Source: an uncultured Ignisphaera sp. (GTDB lineage Archaea > Thermoproteota > Thermoprotei_A > Sulfolobales > Ignisphaeraceae). From it: a stretch of DNA of 64,000 bases. Where the stretch lies: positions 1-64,000 of the forward strand of contig CALJEI010000005.1 of assembly GCA_938074605.1 (NCBI GenBank), written 5' to 3'. This document shows positions 9,065 through 15,975 of the stretch, piece after piece. The position numbers and the translations under genes are program-made. The notes below the pieces were generated by a model, which worked only from the letters and a program-made list of their open reading frames with translations, did not search any database and was not told the DNA's origin. Positions within the stretch are counted from its first letter, which is position 1; every line of letters starts with the position of its first letter.

Positions 9065-10495
9065 TTAGCTGTATCCTATTTCGATAGATGTTTTCATTTC
9101 GTTTAATGTTTTTTCTATTTTCTTTATTGATGTTAGTGTTTTTAGTTGTGTTAATGCATAGTATGCATATGCTATTTTTCTTGTTTCTTCTCTTTTTAAA
9201 AACTTTATTTGTTTTAGTGGTTTTGGTTGTATTAATATTGCTTTTGTTTTTAGTGTTTTAAATATTTCTTCATACGCTTTTTTATCGCTTGTTACTGCAA
9301 TTTTATTTGTTAGTGCTATACCTATTTCACATGGTTGATGGGATGCTTTTTCATCTATATCTATTTTTATTGTTTTAAGTTCTTCTAAAGCTATTTCTGC
9401 TATTGCTGATCTAATTTTTTCGTATGGATTTGTAAAATGTGCTTTGTGTTTTAATAGCTCTATATATGTGCATAGAGGTAAAACTGTATTTTCTTTATTT
9501 TCATAGAGTAGTGTATGTAGTGATGTATACACAATATTTGTGTCTATCAAAACTTCTTCACTTAGTATTGAGATAAAGTCTATTAGAATGGTATCTCTAT
9601 AGCTATTGCAATTAAATGTACATTCCTCTACAGCAGGTAGTAGTATTGAGGAGAATTTAAGTAGAAGGTTAATGGTTTTATCAATATCGTTGTTACTACT
9701 AAAAATTTTTGTTGCTTCAACACCTATTTTATCAACTATATCGATAACTTCTTCATAGTTGCAATAGCTATTGGTTTTAACTAATAGTTTGGGAATACCG
9801 CTAACAGATATAGATATTTTCATCTCTTTGCATATAACATCTATTGGGTGGAGGAGTGTTGATGGTGTAAACCCTTGATTAAATCTATATTGTGTATATG
9901 CTAATTCTCTTCTAAATTTAGATGCAATACCTATTTTCTCAAGAAAATACTCTATAGATTTACGATCAATTAAATATATAGAGGTTGATTTAATCAATGA
10001 TTTAACATTTTCTGCATTTGGATGAAGAATTGTTAGTGGTTCTAAAGGCTTAGGTGTAAATGGGTAGAAGAGTTTGTTCCACGGACCCCAGTAGAAAGGT
10101 ATGTATACAAGAACTATATCTTCTCTAATACGTGAAGCAGCTAAAACAACTGTAGAAATCTCTAGTCTAGAACCTGTAAATACAGCTATAACTATCCTCC
10201 CCCTATCCCTAAAACTCTTTAAAATACTCCAAATTTTTTCAACAAGACCATCAAAAGAATTTAAATCATTTGGATCTGGAAACAATGGACATACATCAAA
10301 AACAACATCAGAAAACAAACCACTTAACAACCCAACAACATCTCTAGCCTCAACCTCCCTAGATCTAGAAACAAAAACCTCAACAAAACCACATTTAAAA
10401 ACTTCTAAAACCCTAAAAACAGATGTTAAAAAAGCCTCCCTAGGCTCACTATAAAACGTAACTAAAACACAAACCTCACTAGACAAAACCAACAA
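9065..10495 (-). CDS. putative CARF-PIN fusion, CRISPR-ancillary nuclease
   Basis: This 476-aa protein has two parts. Residues 1-150 look like a CARF Rossmann domain: strand VCVLVTFYSEPRE with following helix near 8-30, and IVIAVFTGSRLEISTVVLAA (101-120), which corresponds to the TGG-K-loop motif of CARF proteins. Residues about 310-425 look like a PIN nuclease: VLIDTNIVYTSL with D318, YIELLKHK with E346, and KIAVTSDKKAYEE with D404. The middle is helical. CARF-PIN combinations are known among ring-nucleotide-activated ancillary effectors. It stands alone, about 1.3 kb from csa3, across a decayed region. The assignment is by eye, and no cyclase (Cas10) is in the window. Confidence 0.5.
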   Translation of the reverse strand: MLVLSSEVCVLVTFYSEPREAFLTSVFRVLEVFKCGFVEVFVSRSREVEARDVVGLLSGLFSDVVFDVCPLFPDPNDLNSFDGLVEKIWSILKSFRDRGRIVIAVFTGSRLEISTVVLAASRIREDIVLVYIPFYWGPWNKLFYPFTPKPLEPLTILHPNAENVKSLIKSTSIYLIDRKSIEYFLEKIGIASKFRRELAYTQYRFNQGFTPSTLLHPIDVICKEMKISISVSGIPKLLVKTNSYCNYEEVIDIVDKIGVEATKIFSSNNDIDKTINLLLKFSSILLPAVEECTFNCNSYRDTILIDFISILSEEVLIDTNIVYTSLHTLLYENKENTVLPLCTYIELLKHKAHFTNPYEKIRSAIAEIALEELKTIKIDIDEKASHQPCEIGIALTNKIAVTSDKKAYEEIFKTLKTKAILIQPKPLKQIKFLKREETRKIAYAYYALTQLKTLTSIKKIEKTLNEMKTSIEIGYS

Positions 10496-10545: not shown

Positions 10546-11382
10546 CTATCTTCCTACAAAACGCCTCAACACAAACAAAATAGGAGGCAATACTATCAAC
10601 AATAAAATTGCTGCTGACAAAGGTGATAACCGCTCTACAGTTGTTGTTACCGTAGTTTCAACTGTATGTATAATTGGAGTTGTAACTATATATGTGGTTG
10701 GTAGATGTAGTGTAGTCATCATTGTATAAGTAGTTGGTATATATTTTGTGATTGGCATTGTTTCTACAACAGTTGTTGTTACCGTGTCTTTAACTATTCT
10801 GGTTTCTGTAGCTATAGTTCTTACTGTTGTTGTAGCAACTATTGTGAATGTTGATGTTAGTGTTTTAGTTATTGTAGTTGTTATAGTTTTTTCTGCACAT
10901 GGGTCGTATGGTAAATATATGTATAGACTCCATGTGTATGGGTTAAACTCATTTTTATAATCAAATATATCTGCATAGCCATTGTCAATAAGCCATTTAT
11001 TTACATTAAGAATATGTGTTTTGTTGTATCTTAGATAAGCAATAGCTACAATTCTATTATATTTATCCATAACATAGAGATCATCTACATCTAGATATAC
11101 CCTGGCTCCATATTTTAACACAAGATTGTATAGGGCATTTCGAGCAAGAACCCCTTCATCTGTATTAATTTCAGGTGCATTTATATCAGCAAGTCTAACT
11201 CTACCAATAGGAAAAGCATCAAAAGTATCACCATCAACAACATGATATATATCTGCACATACATCAACCTCAACATACTGAGTATCAATATCTATATTAA
11301 TAACCATCAGATATGTGGTGATAGATAGTATAAAGAGGTATAGCAAAAATTTAGACATGGATCTATTAATCAAACAAAACAC
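10546..11382 (-). CDS. membrane-anchored thermonuclease (SNase family)
   Basis: This 278-aa protein has an N-terminal hydrophobic signal (about 11-28), a staphylococcal-nuclease fold (about 42-140), a Thr/Val-rich low-complexity stalk (about 165-245) and a C-terminal helix followed by RRFVGR. The nuclease motifs are VVDGDTF (48-54), GRVRLADINAPE (60-71) and DKYNRIVAIAY (106-116), containing the expected active-site Arg residues. This is an exported, wall-tethered DNase/RNase, probably for degrading environmental nucleic acid. The stalk is typical of crenarchaeal S-layer-anchored enzymes. Downstream on the same strand is the CARF-PIN gene, 51 bases away. Confidence 0.82.
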   Translation of the reverse strand: MFCLINRSMSKFLLYLFILSITTYLMVINIDIDTQYVEVDVCADIYHVVDGDTFDAFPIGRVRLADINAPEINTDEGVLARNALYNLVLKYGARVYLDVDDLYVMDKYNRIVAIAYLRYNKTHILNVNKWLIDNGYADIFDYKNEFNPYTWSLYIYLPYDPCAEKTITTTITKTLTSTFTIVATTTVRTIATETRIVKDTVTTTVVETMPITKYIPTTYTMMTTLHLPTTYIVTTPIIHTVETTVTTTVERLSPLSAAILLLIVLPPILFVLRRFVGR

Positions 11383-11494: not shown

Positions 11495-13777
11495 TTAAGA
11501 CTCTTCTTCTCTTCTAGATTCTTCTAATGAAATCCACTCATCTTCGATTAATTCTAGGTCAAAGATGTATTCTTCTGGTGTATAGATAGCTTTACTAATA
11601 TAACTATTATCTATAGTGTTTATGTCTATAGTGTTTATATGGGGGTTTACTGACAATAGATTTAACTCTATTGGGTAGTAGGTACAAGCACCTTGTTCCT
11701 CTGGAAGTGTACAGATTTGTAGATGTAGATATAGTGTTGCTGTTTGCCCTGTTGTGGGGAAGTATGCTGAAAGAGTTGCATTTGCTTTACCACTAGGCTC
11801 TATTGTTATCCAGCTAGTTCTATCTGAAATAATTACACCATTAACTATTTTAATATTTGTAGATATAGATGTATCACTAGCTAAACTTATATTAGCTGTT
11901 AAACTATCTAGGTTACTCATGGGGTTGAGGAGTAGGTGTATGTAATATGTTTTTAAATTAGAGTTAGCTATAGTAATGAAAACAACTCTTGACGTTGTTG
12001 ATGGATTTGCTGAAATCTTAGCTGATATAGAAGTAGATGTTTTGTTAGCCCCCATAGCATAGTTTAATGGAGATAGTATAAGGCTATATACATCTCCACC
12101 AAGAATAGCATCAGGCGATGTATATATAGCACATATAGAGCCATCTGGATATCTAACAAAAATTCTTCCATCAAAACCCCTACCAACAACAACATCATGA
12201 ACTACACTAAGCTGTAGTGTAGCACCTATAGCAAAACCTAAAGACACAAGATTGCCAAGATCATCCCACACCTCTACAGCCATACCATTAACTAAACCAC
12301 TAAAAACAATATTCCTTGGATCAGAAACAGCTATCATAAAATCATCAAAGTAGGCATTTACATTATCCACTTCAACACCTATATATGCAGGAGCAAACAT
12401 TCTTGCATGAGTTGAAGAAGCTGATACCGATGTTAATAAGCTACCAGTAGAGCTGTAAACCCTTGCCATAATGTTTACAGCTGCTGGTGTAACTGTATAG
12501 TTAGTAACTAAAATATACCATGAACCTCTTACGTAATCTGGAATAGCGCTAGAGGCTAACAGACTCCAACTTGTTGACTCAACGTTATAGCTCCGTATCT
12601 CAACATGACCTGTTGTACGTATCTCAACTGTGTATAGCCTAGTTCTATCTTTATTCATCATCGATATTCCATACCATCCTGATCCAGATACCCACCTTGT
12701 TTTTGAAACAATCCAAAGACTTGTATATGATGATAGATCTATATTGTAGTAGTAGTGTGATGCCCCGCCTAAACCTAGGCCATTATCAACTCCCTGTAGA
12801 ACATTTCCCTTGGCTCCCGAAACACCGCTTACTAAACTCCATGTACCACCAGAGCTACTCCATCCAGGTACTGGATATACTTCAAAGTCTGTATATGTAA
12901 TTGCTGCTCTACCTGTTCTTAATAGTGATGTACAGATGTAGTTGTATGGTGGTATATCTAGTGTTATGGGTGGTGGTAGTGGGGTTGCTGTAAGTATTGT
13001 TGGGTTATAGACAAAGACTGTAGCTCCTGTTTGTGTAAATAGCATAGATGCTAGTAGTATTGATGCTAGTATCTGTAGTGGTGGTAGTCTAAATGTTTTT
13101 CTATTCTCAACATTTTTTCTCATTGTTTGCTGTAAATATATTTTGTCATATATATAGAGAATCCATACCATTGATGCTACTGATAATATAACTAGTATAG
13201 TGAGAATTATCTGTAGAGCTATACTGTAGGTGAATAGTATGTGGTATACAAATGTTTTTACTATAGACATACCTATAAATTCTATAGTACCTGCTAACGT
13301 TTCAACACTAATTATATTCCTATTTTCATTAACTAGAAATATATTTGCATCAACTTTAAATGCTTGTGCTAAATATCTAACTACACTATTGGTTATTACT
13401 AGAGATAGAGAAACTCCATAGATTATTGCTGCTGATAAAATTATACGCCTTCTTAAATACATTAGTGCTGCTATAGACATAACCAACAATGATGCTATGT
13501 AGATAACTGTAGCTATTGCAGGCATTTTTACAATATCTAAATTAATAAGTCTAATAGATCTATAGTTATTTGCATAGTACATGCTGTAGCCTACTAAAGA
13601 TATATATCCATTGATATATCCTGTAATAGCTATTTGTGGATAGAGAAGAGCAGCTATATACATTATAGAAAGAGCTATAGATAAAACTCCACTAACTACA
13701 GCTATTAGCTTAAGCCTCCTTGGAATATACAGCACTATATCTTTATCTACCCATATCTTACTGTTGTTCGCATCCAT
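11495..13777 (-). CDS. large membrane protein with extracellular lectin-like domain, pilus-associated
   Basis: This 760-aa protein has several hydrophobic helices in its first 250 residues (for example LIAVVSGVLSIALSIMYIAA and AIATVIYIASLLVMSIAAL). These are followed by a long extracellular part that includes a concanavalin/LamG-like stretch (about 295-475; SLWIVSKTRWVSGSGWYGIS, YVRGSWYILVTNY, NVNAYFDDFMIAV) and further beta-rich repeats. The acidic C terminus ends LEESRREEES. It overlaps the upstream signal peptidase gene by 31 bases, so the two are made together. Probable role: anchor or accessory factor for the TasA-like filament encoded two genes upstream. I cannot name the family. Confidence 0.5.
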   Translation of the reverse strand: MDANNSKIWVDKDIVLYIPRRLKLIAVVSGVLSIALSIMYIAALLYPQIAITGYINGYISLVGYSMYYANNYRSIRLINLDIVKMPAIATVIYIASLLVMSIAALMYLRRRIILSAAIIYGVSLSLVITNSVVRYLAQAFKVDANIFLVNENRNIISVETLAGTIEFIGMSIVKTFVYHILFTYSIALQIILTILVILSVASMVWILYIYDKIYLQQTMRKNVENRKTFRLPPLQILASILLASMLFTQTGATVFVYNPTILTATPLPPPITLDIPPYNYICTSLLRTGRAAITYTDFEVYPVPGWSSSGGTWSLVSGVSGAKGNVLQGVDNGLGLGGASHYYYNIDLSSYTSLWIVSKTRWVSGSGWYGISMMNKDRTRLYTVEIRTTGHVEIRSYNVESTSWSLLASSAIPDYVRGSWYILVTNYTVTPAAVNIMARVYSSTGSLLTSVSASSTHARMFAPAYIGVEVDNVNAYFDDFMIAVSDPRNIVFSGLVNGMAVEVWDDLGNLVSLGFAIGATLQLSVVHDVVVGRGFDGRIFVRYPDGSICAIYTSPDAILGGDVYSLILSPLNYAMGANKTSTSISAKISANPSTTSRVVFITIANSNLKTYYIHLLLNPMSNLDSLTANISLASDTSISTNIKIVNGVIISDRTSWITIEPSGKANATLSAYFPTTGQTATLYLHLQICTLPEEQGACTYYPIELNLLSVNPHINTIDINTIDNSYISKAIYTPEEYIFDLELIEDEWISLEESRREEES

Positions 13778-14871
13778 CTATCTACACCTAGAAACCTATA
13801 TCTAATATCTGCATATACATATCTACTACCATCTGGAGGATTAATAACAACCTCCCTAAACCCATCAATGGTGAAACTACTTGATGTATTTCTCCATATA
13901 TCTCCAACTCTATAGGCATAGATAAAAGTTATGTTTATAGGTATTGGAAAACAATTTGGATTTCTTATAAATAGTGATCCATTTAAAGCTTTAACCTCTA
14001 GAAACTCTCCATAGAGTTTAACACTATATCTACCTCTAAGTCTCCCCATACCATTATCTAAAATAGCTACAACCTGTATATCCACAGCATTACTCCAACT
14101 CAATGTTTTAGTTATGCTATGTGGTATTGTAGCTACAATAAATGTTTCATTAAATTGTGTAAAAGCTTTAACACCATCTATATAAACCTCAGCATCTGTT
14201 ATTCTTGGAACACCTGTATAGCCTATAGAAATTGTACAGTCTATATGGCTAAACCCTATTTTAGATAGATAGAGAACTGGAAATTCAATATGTGTTAATT
14301 CAGGTGGTGGTTGTGTAAAGCCATATACAAATAATATGAATAGAAGTATTGTTGTATAAACTATAGCTGCAGCTATGCCAACTAATCTTGTTTTAACTAT
14401 ATCTAGAATAGCTAAAGCTACTGCATAGATAAATAGAGATATCCACAACTCTCTAGGAATAACATATATAGCAACACCTTTAACCATATTAAGGGAAACT
14501 AAAAATGGGTCTGGAGCTAGATTAGCATCACCTTTTGTAATTATACAATTTCCATTAGGGCAATCACCTATATATCTATGAACAACACAAAAACTATGCG
14601 TTAAACAATACACAACTACATCTCCTTTAGATGGCTTAACCCCCATAAAAAGAACTAGATCCCATCTACGAATAGACGGCTCCATACTACCTGAATAAAC
14701 TATAGCACCACCAAACAAATTAAAAATATCTAGACGAGAGAAAAGAGTAAATAGAAAAAGAATTATAAAAACAATTAAAATAGCTGAAGTCAAAACTCTA
14801 AACAAAAGAAAATACAGTAAACGAAAAGGAGAGCATCTATAAAAAAATGAATTAAACTTATAGATATTCAA
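13747..14871 (-). CDS. SipW-type signal peptidase I with C-terminal extension
   Basis: This 374-aa protein has an N-terminal helix (about 25-45), the nucleophile motif SGSMEPSIRRWD (S62), a Ser/His-type second residue in CVVHRY (H98) and the KGDANLAPD box (113-121). His in place of the bacterial general-base Lys puts it in the ER/SipW class. Two more helices follow (about 141-190), then about 180 residues of beta-rich extracellular domain (for example VEVKALNGSLFI-like strands). SipW enzymes process TasA-family filament proteins. Here it sits between a TasA-like subunit gene (13 bases upstream) and a large surface protein gene. Confidence 0.78.
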   Translation of the reverse strand: MNIYKFNSFFYRCSPFRLLYFLLFRVLTSAILIVFIILFLFTLFSRLDIFNLFGGAIVYSGSMEPSIRRWDLVLFMGVKPSKGDVVVYCLTHSFCVVHRYIGDCPNGNCIITKGDANLAPDPFLVSLNMVKGVAIYVIPRELWISLFIYAVALAILDIVKTRLVGIAAAIVYTTILLFILFVYGFTQPPPELTHIEFPVLYLSKIGFSHIDCTISIGYTGVPRITDAEVYIDGVKAFTQFNETFIVATIPHSITKTLSWSNAVDIQVVAILDNGMGRLRGRYSVKLYGEFLEVKALNGSLFIRNPNCFPIPINITFIYAYRVGDIWRNTSSSFTIDGFREVVINPPDGSRYVYADIRYRFLGVDRWMRTTVRYG

Positions 14872-14884
14872 TTATAGTACACCG

Positions 14885-15523
14885 CTATGGCGGTGTTTCT
14901 CCAGATGGTGTATACACTATATACATACTAAATGTTGCTGAGGCTCCAGTTATAGATGTATCCTCAGGTATATAGACCATAAAATCTATCTCCCACTTCG
15001 ATCCAGCACCAAGACTCCCAATTTCTAGAGTGTTAGTGCCTAAAGTATTTAGCTCAATTACTTTAACTACTGCAGCATTATCTGGAGGAGCTGGCTGTGG
15101 ATAGAGTTTGATAGCCCTAGTCTCACCACTACTGTATACTATTAGCCATACACTGGAGTCAGGTGGAAGATTGTTGTTTACATTATTTAGAACTAGATAG
15201 ACGTTATACACCTTGTTATCTGTGTTGATTATCATTATAACGTTTTTGTAGTAAGTTATTTGATATGTTGGATGTATTATTACTTCAGCACTACTTCCGC
15301 TGGCTCCTAATTCAACATCAATAGTCTTACCACTCCCTAGATCAGGTTGATTTGCATTGCTTCCACGATCAAAGTATATTGGTGGTTGAACTGGTTGAAC
15401 TATTAGCTGGAATGGGTAGTATGCAAAGACAGTAGCTGCTATAAATGCTGCTGCTAATATAGCTATAGTTGTTAGCAGTGGTTCTCTATCTCTTATCCTC
15501 ATACTAATTACCCCTAGATACAC
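14885..15523 (-). CDS. TasA/AbpA-like filament subunit
   Basis: This 212-aa secreted protein has a signal helix (LLTTIAILAAAFIAATVFAY, about 17-36) and a beta-rich body with the layout of TasA/archaeal bundling pilin proteins: a strand VIMIINTDNKVYNVYLVLNN, a later GAGSKWEIDFMVYIPED segment, and a C-terminal strand FSMYIVYTPSG. It lacks a class III pilin signal, so it is not a type IV pilin. In Pyrobaculum the homologous AbpA subunits polymerise by donor-strand exchange into cell-connecting bundles. The adjacent SipW-type peptidase supports this. Its own promoter (TTTTAAATATATAA-like, about 15536-15550 on the minus strand) lies just upstream. Confidence 0.55.
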   Translation of the reverse strand: MYLGVISMRIRDREPLLTTIAILAAAFIAATVFAYYPFQLIVQPVQPPIYFDRGSNANQPDLGSGKTIDVELGASGSSAEVIIHPTYQITYYKNVIMIINTDNKVYNVYLVLNNVNNNLPPDSSVWLIVYSSGETRAIKLYPQPAPPDNAAVVKVIELNTLGTNTLEIGSLGAGSKWEIDFMVYIPEDTSITGASATFSMYIVYTPSGETPP

Positions 15524-15975
15524 TATTTTTAGTGTTATATATTTAAAATTTCTCTCTAAATAAAAGCAGTTTTATCCATGATATCTATTCGAATTTCCAA
15601 GTTTCTAAAATAAAATTTCTATCCTTATATGCAATATATGTGTTCTATTTATTTTTCAAAACACTATATATCCATATTACTTAACGATATATTTAAAGAA
15701 ATATCTTCTTTTTAATTGTTTTACTCCATAAACCTTATTCTAGCTATAGTCATAAGCATTGTTTTAAAATACTCTATATCTATACCCCTCTATCTACTTC
15801 CTCTATCAACCCTATTTCCACCAATTTTAATGCTATCTCTTCTCCTATAGCCAGAACATTTTCAAAAATATAGATGTTACTAGCTTTTGTACCAAATTTC
15901 TAAAGAAATGCTTTAAGGGGTGGAAGGTTGGATGAACCGATGAACACTTTTGGTTGATGGGAGGTGTGTTTTTGT
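15524..15975. other. 452-base intergenic region
   Basis: The right part is AT-rich, with the leftward promoter of the filament subunit near 15536-15550. The segment 15721-15900 carries a short protein-like minus-strand relic (listed separately). The end, 15901-15975, is G-rich on the plus strand with GATGAAC repeated, without a recognisable RNA gene. No other feature seen. Confidence 0.5.
15721..15900 (-). pseudogene. possible gene relic, unidentified
   Basis: Minus-strand translation gives a protein-like string (FENVLAIGEEIALKLVEIG, then LIEEVDRG), a stop at 15780-15782 and, in another frame, IEYFKTMLMTIARIRF ending at 15721. The two pieces read as one C-terminal fragment broken by an indel. 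There is no start region and I cannot assign a family. Confidence 0.25.

What the first reader, a model, noticed from the sequence alone, without database searches (positions are those of the whole stretch)
11495..15523. TasA/AbpA-like filament cluster with a large lectin-like partner
A beta-rich secreted subunit, a Ser/His SipW-type peptidase with its own surface extension, and a 760-aa membrane protein with a LamG-like ectodomain are adjacent and co-directional. The first two match the known bundling-pilus arrangement. The third could be a cell-surface anchor or adhesin that has not been assigned to these filaments.
Basis: partly seen in the sequence, partly recalled or inferred. Interest (0 to 1): 0.6.

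Follow-up and report, generated by a model that had tools for sequence, protein, structure and literature searches.

The report
Archaeal thread-filament operon with lectin subunit
This archaeal gene cluster probably builds a thin adhesive surface fibre of the 'thread' type, and its largest protein looks like a fusion of a membrane assembly protein with a lectin-bearing fibre subunit that is cut loose by the cluster's own signal peptidase, making it a candidate for the fibre's missing adhesive end piece.

Summary
The small protein belongs to the archaeal thread-filament family: its family profile finds the Saci_0406 thread subunit (7pnb, E 7e-9), and the AlphaFold model (pLDDT 93) matches thread (E 5e-8) and AbpA bundling pili (E 2e-7) and little else. 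The second protein is a Ser/His signal peptidase with a conserved C-terminal ectodomain; the genome has another, stand-alone one. The 760-aa protein is not a simple lectin-bearing membrane anchor. It is a fusion of two genes that are separate in most relatives: a 4-TM membrane protein (aa 1-225) and a secreted subunit. The secreted part starts with a SipW-type cleavage site and the same N-terminal donor-strand motif as the thread subunit (A|TVFVYNP...PLPPP), then a lectin/LamG-like domain, then a domain homologous to the thread head (96%). The unit thread-large-SipW-4TM recurs in this order in 27 loci and as the fusion in 10-11, across many families. Best reading: the large protein is a minor, lectin-bearing thread subunit (tip adhesin or cap) released by the dedicated peptidase, with the 4-TM and peptidase ectodomains as assembly platform. 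Filament incorporation and tip location are inferred. New variant of a known kind.

The parts
14885..15502 (-). Thread-type filament subunit (likely ATG start 15502; mechanical ORF start GTG 15523)
   Evidence: Profile A1 hits 7pnb E 7e-9; thread vs small profile-profile prob 98.4, E 9e-15; AF2 model matches 7pnb and 7ueg
15371..15433 (-). Mature N-terminus / putative donor strand TVFAYYPFQLIVQPVQPPIYF, following cleavage after invariant A30 (GTG-start numbering)
   Evidence: A30 invariant in 50 relatives; same position as the Saci_0406 Ala23|Asp24 site (PMC9715654)
13747..14871 (-). SipW-type (Ser62/His98) signal peptidase with C-terminal ectodomain
   Evidence: TIGR02228 60 bits over cutoff; alignment A5
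13750..14289 (-). Conserved C-terminal extracellular extension of the peptidase ('SIPC')
   Evidence: Own HMM recovers it in about 40 loci; kept without the peptidase domain in f10-family genomes L106/L108/L109/L114/L115
13103..13777 (-). N-terminal 4-TM membrane module of the 760-aa protein (separate gene of about 200 aa in most relatives)
   Evidence: Alignment A7; hydropathy; 62/226 class genomes
13022..13093 (-). Internal signal-peptide-like segment FRLPPLQILASILLASMLFTQTGA with predicted cleavage after A252
   Evidence: HMM built from thread N-termini only hits here, E 4e-4, and at the matching place in the other fused proteins
12953..13021 (-). Putative donor strand of the large subunit, TVFVYNPTILTATPLPPPITLDI
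   Evidence: Thread-N-terminus HMM; small-vs-large hhalign 97%, 42 columns
12317..12940 (-). LamG/legume-lectin-like domain of the large subunit (aa about 280-487)
   Evidence: AF2 pLDDT about 97 in this part; Foldseek 3zyp, legume lectins, galactocerebrosidase, prob 1.00, TMt up to about 0.57 for single-domain targets. The boundary is approximate.
12107..12313 (-). Small beta linker domain (aa about 489-557)
   Evidence: AF2 secondary structure; conserved block in A2
11651..12094 (-). Thread-head-like C-terminal domain of the large subunit (aa about 562-709)
   Evidence: hhalign of head domains alone, without the N-terminus: prob 96.4, E 1.3e-9, 120 columns in register
11498..11650 (-). Acidic C-terminal tail, not hydrophobic, absent from relatives
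   Evidence: Alignment A2; low pLDDT at mature 461-491
15536..15548 (-). TATA-like sequence TTTTAAATATATA upstream of the thread gene
   Evidence: Sequence inspection only

Best explanation
A four-module operon for an adhesive donor-strand filament of the archaeal thread / bundling-pilus kind. The small protein is the repeating subunit: exported by Sec, cut after A30, and polymerised by insertion of its N-terminal strand into a neighbour's head. The large ectodomain is a minor subunit of the same kind (same cut site and donor strand, thread-type head) with a lectin-like domain between the strand and the head; it is probably the filament's terminal adhesive or capping piece. Here it is translated in one chain with the 4-TM membrane module and should be released by the operon's own signal peptidase at A252|T253. 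The 4-TM module and the peptidase's C-terminal ectodomain most likely form the membrane platform that holds and feeds subunits. Shown: homologies, fusion, shared N-terminal motif, conserved linkage. Inferred: cleavage by this peptidase, incorporation in the filament, tip position, sugar binding, platform role.
For: Thread homology: profile vs PDB 7pnb E 7e-9, hhalign 98.4%, Foldseek 7pnb 5e-8 and 7ueg 1.8e-7 with the next hit at 9e-3. Large protein: an HMM made only from thread N-termini picks 44 ORFs of 240 aa or more from 3,397, nearly all of them large partners or long thread-like genes of these loci, the fused proteins being hit at an internal position of about 200-250. Head-to-head hhalign 96.4%, E 1.3e-9. 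Lectin fold. In L063, L078 and L087 the lectin-like domain interrupts a thread-like sequence that resumes after it. Linkage: 27 loci THREAD>LARGE>SIPW>4TM, 10 loci THREAD>SIPW>4TM::LARGE plus one split copy. Thread and 4TM co-occur in 53 genomes against 9 with 4TM only and 24 with thread only; Fisher p 2e-23, not corrected for ancestry. Fusion or fission of 4TM and LARGE changed at least 4 times on the tree. The genome has a second, stand-alone signal peptidase, so the operon's one looks dedicated.
Against: No experiment here. In some genomes the large gene lies elsewhere (G092, G095, G113, G117) or was not found, so it is not strictly required for the operon. The fused protein could stay uncut and hold the lectin at the membrane. 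The lectin fold is also used for non-sugar functions, and no ligand site was identified. The match of the window's own large N-terminus to the thread-N-terminus HMM is modest (E 4e-4).
Confidence: 0.62

Rival explanations
1. The large protein is the cell-proximal anchor or terminator: its 4-TM part stays attached or rebinds, its donor strand plugs the last thread subunit, and the lectin-like domain binds S-layer or cell-surface glycans to hold the filament.
For: Fusion to a membrane module; Gaines et al. proposed either a cell-proximal or a distal cap for Saci_0405 because filament polarity is unknown (PMC9715654).
Against: The A|[ST]VFxYxP cut site is kept in the fused proteins. In most relatives the two parts are separate genes and the secreted part has no C-terminal membrane segment.
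Confidence: 0.25
2. The large protein is a separate adhesin that merely shares the secretion route and peptidase with the thread subunit and is not built into the filament.
For: LamG paralogues occur in unrelated surface proteins of some genomes (L116, L072, G129); the large gene is unlinked in some genomes.
Against: The donor-strand motif and thread-type head have no obvious purpose in a non-filament adhesin; tight linkage in most loci.
Confidence: 0.12
3. TapA-like role: the large subunit is mainly a chaperone or nucleator for thread assembly, and the lectin domain is incidental.
For: TapA of B. subtilis is a minor protein whose strand nucleates TasA filaments next to SipW (PMC10151520).
Against: The lectin-like domain is retained widely, and some other loci carry large partners with weak PA14/GLEYA matches instead, which suggests selection for binding.
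Confidence: 0.15

Closest known systems
Sulfolobus acidocaldarius thread (Saci_0404-0409 cluster; PDB 7pnb, 8rzl)
   Same: Homologous subunit, same signal-peptide cut position and N-terminal strand, linked minor subunit (Saci_0405 putative cap), a large secreted neighbour (Saci_0404) starting with a similar ...SA|SVYYFF motif, and linked membrane genes.
   Different: No signal peptidase in the Sulfolobus locus; saci_0407/0408 and the next 266-aa 4-TM gene are only weakly similar to the peptidase ectodomain and the 4-TM module (hhalign not significant); the isopeptide residue Asn57 aligns to an insertion.
Archaeal bundling pilus AbpA of Pyrobaculum calidifontis (7ueg)
   Same: Predicted fold (Foldseek E 1.8e-7, TM about 0.6).
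   Different: No sequence-profile match to 7ueg at E up to 10; the AbpA locus was not examined because its paper is not held.
TasA/TapA/SipW of Bacillus
   Same: Logic: major donor-strand subunit, minor partner and a dedicated Ser/His signal peptidase in one operon.
   Different: PF12389 finds no match; no lectin-like domain and no 4-TM partner in that operon as far as I know (from memory).
CFA/I and type 1 pilus tip adhesins (CfaE, FimH)
   Same: Analogy only: a lectin or adhesin domain joined to a pilin-type domain at the end of a donor-strand filament; weak Foldseek match to CfaE-CfaB chains.
   Different: Not homologous by any test here; no chaperone or usher seen in the locus.

Membership tests
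Archaeal thread subunit (Saci_0406 family) | Sequence homology to Saci_0406 | tested here: met
   E 7e-9, prob 98.4; Saci_0406 alone hits several members
Archaeal thread subunit (Saci_0406 family) | Sec signal peptide cut by signal peptidase I just before the N-terminal tail strand | tested here: met
   Sequence signature only: invariant A30 followed by [ST]VFxYYP; cleavage itself not assayed
Archaeal thread subunit (Saci_0406 family) | Beta-sandwich head of the thread fold | tested here: met
   Predicted model, Foldseek 7pnb E 5e-8, TM 0.63
Archaeal thread subunit (Saci_0406 family) | Polymerisation by donor strand complementation | not testable with these tools
   Only the strand and the fold are seen
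Archaeal thread subunit (Saci_0406 family) | Isopeptide bond between the N-terminal amine and Asn57 of the n-2 subunit | tested here: inconclusive
   Asn57 falls in an insertion relative to this family (alignment); another Asn (N56) is nearly invariant here
AbpA bundling pilus | AbpA fold | tested here: met
   Foldseek 7ueg E 1.8e-7
AbpA bundling pilus | Sequence match to AbpA | tested here: not met
   7ueg absent at E up to 10 with profile A6
TasA/camelysin (PF12389) | Pfam model match | tested here: not met
   0 matches in the genome; B. subtilis control positive
SipW-type / archaeal signal peptidase I | Ser/His catalytic pair and family score | tested here: met
   S62, H98; TIGR02228 60 bits, cutoff 51.85; NCBI's Bacillus SipW model 28 bits, under its cutoff of 190
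LamG / concanavalin-like lectin fold (large protein) | Fold match | tested here: met
LamG / concanavalin-like lectin fold (large protein) | Sequence family match (Pfam/NCBIfam) | tested here: not met
   No match
LamG / concanavalin-like lectin fold (large protein) | Carbohydrate binding | not testable with these tools

The most novel reading that the evidence does not exclude
This is the complete parts list of a chaperone-free, usher-free donor-strand adhesive pilus: rod subunit, lectin-bearing end subunit, dedicated signal peptidase whose ectodomain doubles as part of the assembly platform, and a 4-TM platform protein. In this lineage the platform and the end subunit are made as one polyprotein, and peptidase cleavage both matures the adhesin and starts the filament.
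Probability: 0.4. Interest if true: 0.75.

Novelty: new variant of a known kind. Interest (0 to 1): 0.55.

Why it matters
The thread papers report that the assembly machinery of threads is unknown and that Saci_0404, 0407 and 0408 have no assigned role. The conserved four-module unit found here names concrete candidates (end adhesin, dedicated peptidase, platform) across many Thermoproteota families, and extends thread-type filaments well beyond the Sulfolobus, Acidianus and Vulcanisaeta species named in that work. The retained internal cut site makes a simple, testable prediction.

Tried and rejected
PF12389 (TasA/camelysin) in the genome: nothing. Pfam, NCBIfam, PHROG and PDB sequence searches of the 760-aa protein: nothing useful. 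Phage origin: no match. Homology of saci_0407/0408 with the peptidase ectodomain, and of the 266-aa 4-TM Sulfolobus gene with the 4-TM module: positions and topology agree, but hhalign is not significant (best local P 2e-4 at 47% probability for the 4-TM pair), so this is left as a suggestion. Saci_0404 vs large: only the N-terminus looks alike, not significant. Simple membrane-anchor reading of the 760-aa protein: set aside because the parts are separate genes in most relatives and the cut site is kept. Link to the SNase-like neighbour: it recurs in only a few loci. First genome-contig scan with the small protein: no relatives. The AbpA paper (PNAS 2022) is not held, so its locus description could not be checked.

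Full report
Observation. The three ORFs are present and co-directional on the - strand. The small ORF most likely starts at ATG 15502, which has an AGGGG motif upstream. The 760-aa ORF begins inside the end of the peptidase ORF. The genome is a 1.63-Mb assembly in 17 contigs with a single copy of the small gene. Named relatives of the large gene are Thermoproteota MAGs: Desulfurococcales, Thermogladius, Fervidicoccus, Zestosphaera, Nezhaarchaeota and a Bathyarchaeota.

The small protein. Relatives by single-sequence search occur in 59 of 229 class genomes and 30 of 87 genera. Their profile finds the S. acidocaldarius thread subunit in the PDB (7pnb E 7e-9, 8rzl E 9e-4), and Saci_0406 alone finds several of them back. 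Profile against profile the two families match with 98.4% probability over 182 columns. The AlphaFold2 model (pLDDT 93) matches the thread (E 5e-8) and the Pyrobaculum bundling pilus AbpA (E 1.8e-7), and nothing else below 8e-3. The invariant alanine A30 followed by [ST]VFxYYP....PxxPPVxF matches the Ala23|Asp24 processing site and tail strand described for Saci_0406 (PMC9715654). It is therefore a thread-type subunit.

The peptidase. Ser62/His98 and TIGR02228 over cutoff. The C-terminal ectodomain is conserved in about 40 loci. In one family of genomes (f10: L106, L108, L109, L114, L115) the peptidase domain is gone while the TM plus ectodomain and the neighbouring 4-TM gene remain (99.4% and 99.7% probability). 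This suggests the ectodomain has a job of its own. A second, stand-alone signal peptidase exists elsewhere in the genome.

The 760-aa protein is a fusion. In most relatives the segment matching aa 1-214 is a separate ~200-aa 4-TM gene, and the segment matching aa ~237-707 is a separate secreted protein of ~390-500 aa. Hydropathy places four TM segments before aa 215, then a basic stretch expected to be cytosolic, and then a signal-peptide-like segment ending at A252. An HMM built only from thread-subunit N-termini (signal peptide plus 21 mature residues) was run against 3,397 ORFs of all loci. The 44 hits of 240 aa or more were nearly all large partners or long thread-like genes of these loci, and the fused proteins hit at the internal site. 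After that strand comes a domain predicted at high confidence to be lectin-like, a small linker domain, and a C-terminal domain that matches the thread head on its own (96.4%, E 1.3e-9, in register). In three divergent relatives the lectin-like domain visibly interrupts a thread-like sequence. On the tree of large ectodomains the fused state needs about six changes, at least four by well-supported branches. So fusion, fission or transfer happened repeatedly, which fits a close working relation of the two parts.

The conserved unit. Loci fall into THREAD>LARGE>SIPW>4TM (27), THREAD>SIPW>4TM::LARGE (10, plus one split copy) and THREAD>SIPW>4TM with LARGE elsewhere or not found (9, including four where only the peptidase's TM-plus-ectodomain part is left); most of the rest are contig ends or Sulfolobaceae/Vulcanisaeta-type loci with a different accessory set. 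The unit also appears outside the order, in other phylum-level relatives. Flanking genes of the window recur in only 1-5 loci. Thread and 4-TM genes co-occur strongly, although that test ignores ancestry.

Comparison with S. acidocaldarius. Genome G213 holds Saci_0406 at 100%. Its locus (L130) has, by position relative to Saci_0406, Saci_0404 beginning with ...ITSA|SVYYFFQAQLIFTP, Saci_0405, Saci_0406, a membrane-anchored beta protein (0407/0408, split in this genome and a single ORF in sister G214) and a 4-TM gene. The layout parallels the unit described here without the peptidase. The sequence tests between the accessory genes are not significant, so the equivalence is a hypothesis. The thread papers call Saci_0405 a putative cap and leave 0404, 0407 and 0408 unassigned (PMC9715654, PMC11607397).

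Mechanism. Most likely: Sec export, cleavage of both subunits by the dedicated peptidase at A|[ST]V, strand complementation into a thin filament, and the large lectin-bearing subunit at one end. The platform is made of the 4-TM protein and the peptidase ectodomain. Cleavage, incorporation, position and binding are inferred; the homologies and linkage are shown. Whether the lectin end is distal (adhesin) or proximal (anchor) cannot be decided here.

Noticed in passing
window 10546-11382 (-): 278-aa surface protein with an SNase domain (PF00565 E 3e-6), a Thr-rich stalk and a C-terminal TM segment; relatives lie near thread loci in L078, L106, L109 and L062.
   Followed up: partly
L106, L108, L109, L114, L115 (f10 genomes): The thread locus has lost the signal-peptidase domain but keeps its TM plus ectodomain and the 4-TM gene.
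   Followed up: partly
L130:10652-11483 and L131:10571-11401: The saci_0407/0408 region is two overlapping ORFs in the S. acidocaldarius genome but a single 276-aa ORF in the sister genome G214.
   Followed up: partly
L154-L157: Genomes of Vulcanisaeta-like size carry a ~335-aa thread-like gene, a thread gene, the two Sulfolobus-type membrane genes and a further strand-bearing gene; L157 and L171 have large partners with weak PA14/GLEYA matches.
   Followed up: partly
L119:8060-9289, L116:7482-10160, L072:7991-9940: LamG-type domains of the same family in other surface proteins, one joined to a thread head, one with a weak Kelch match.
   Followed up: no
L079:9585-10138: In G132 the thread gene appears split into two ORFs (103 and 83 aa) by a frame change.
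   Followed up: no
window 9065-10495 (-): 476-aa ORF with no Pfam match (and one weak, sub-cutoff NCBIfam match) and no relative in the fetched loci.
   Followed up: no
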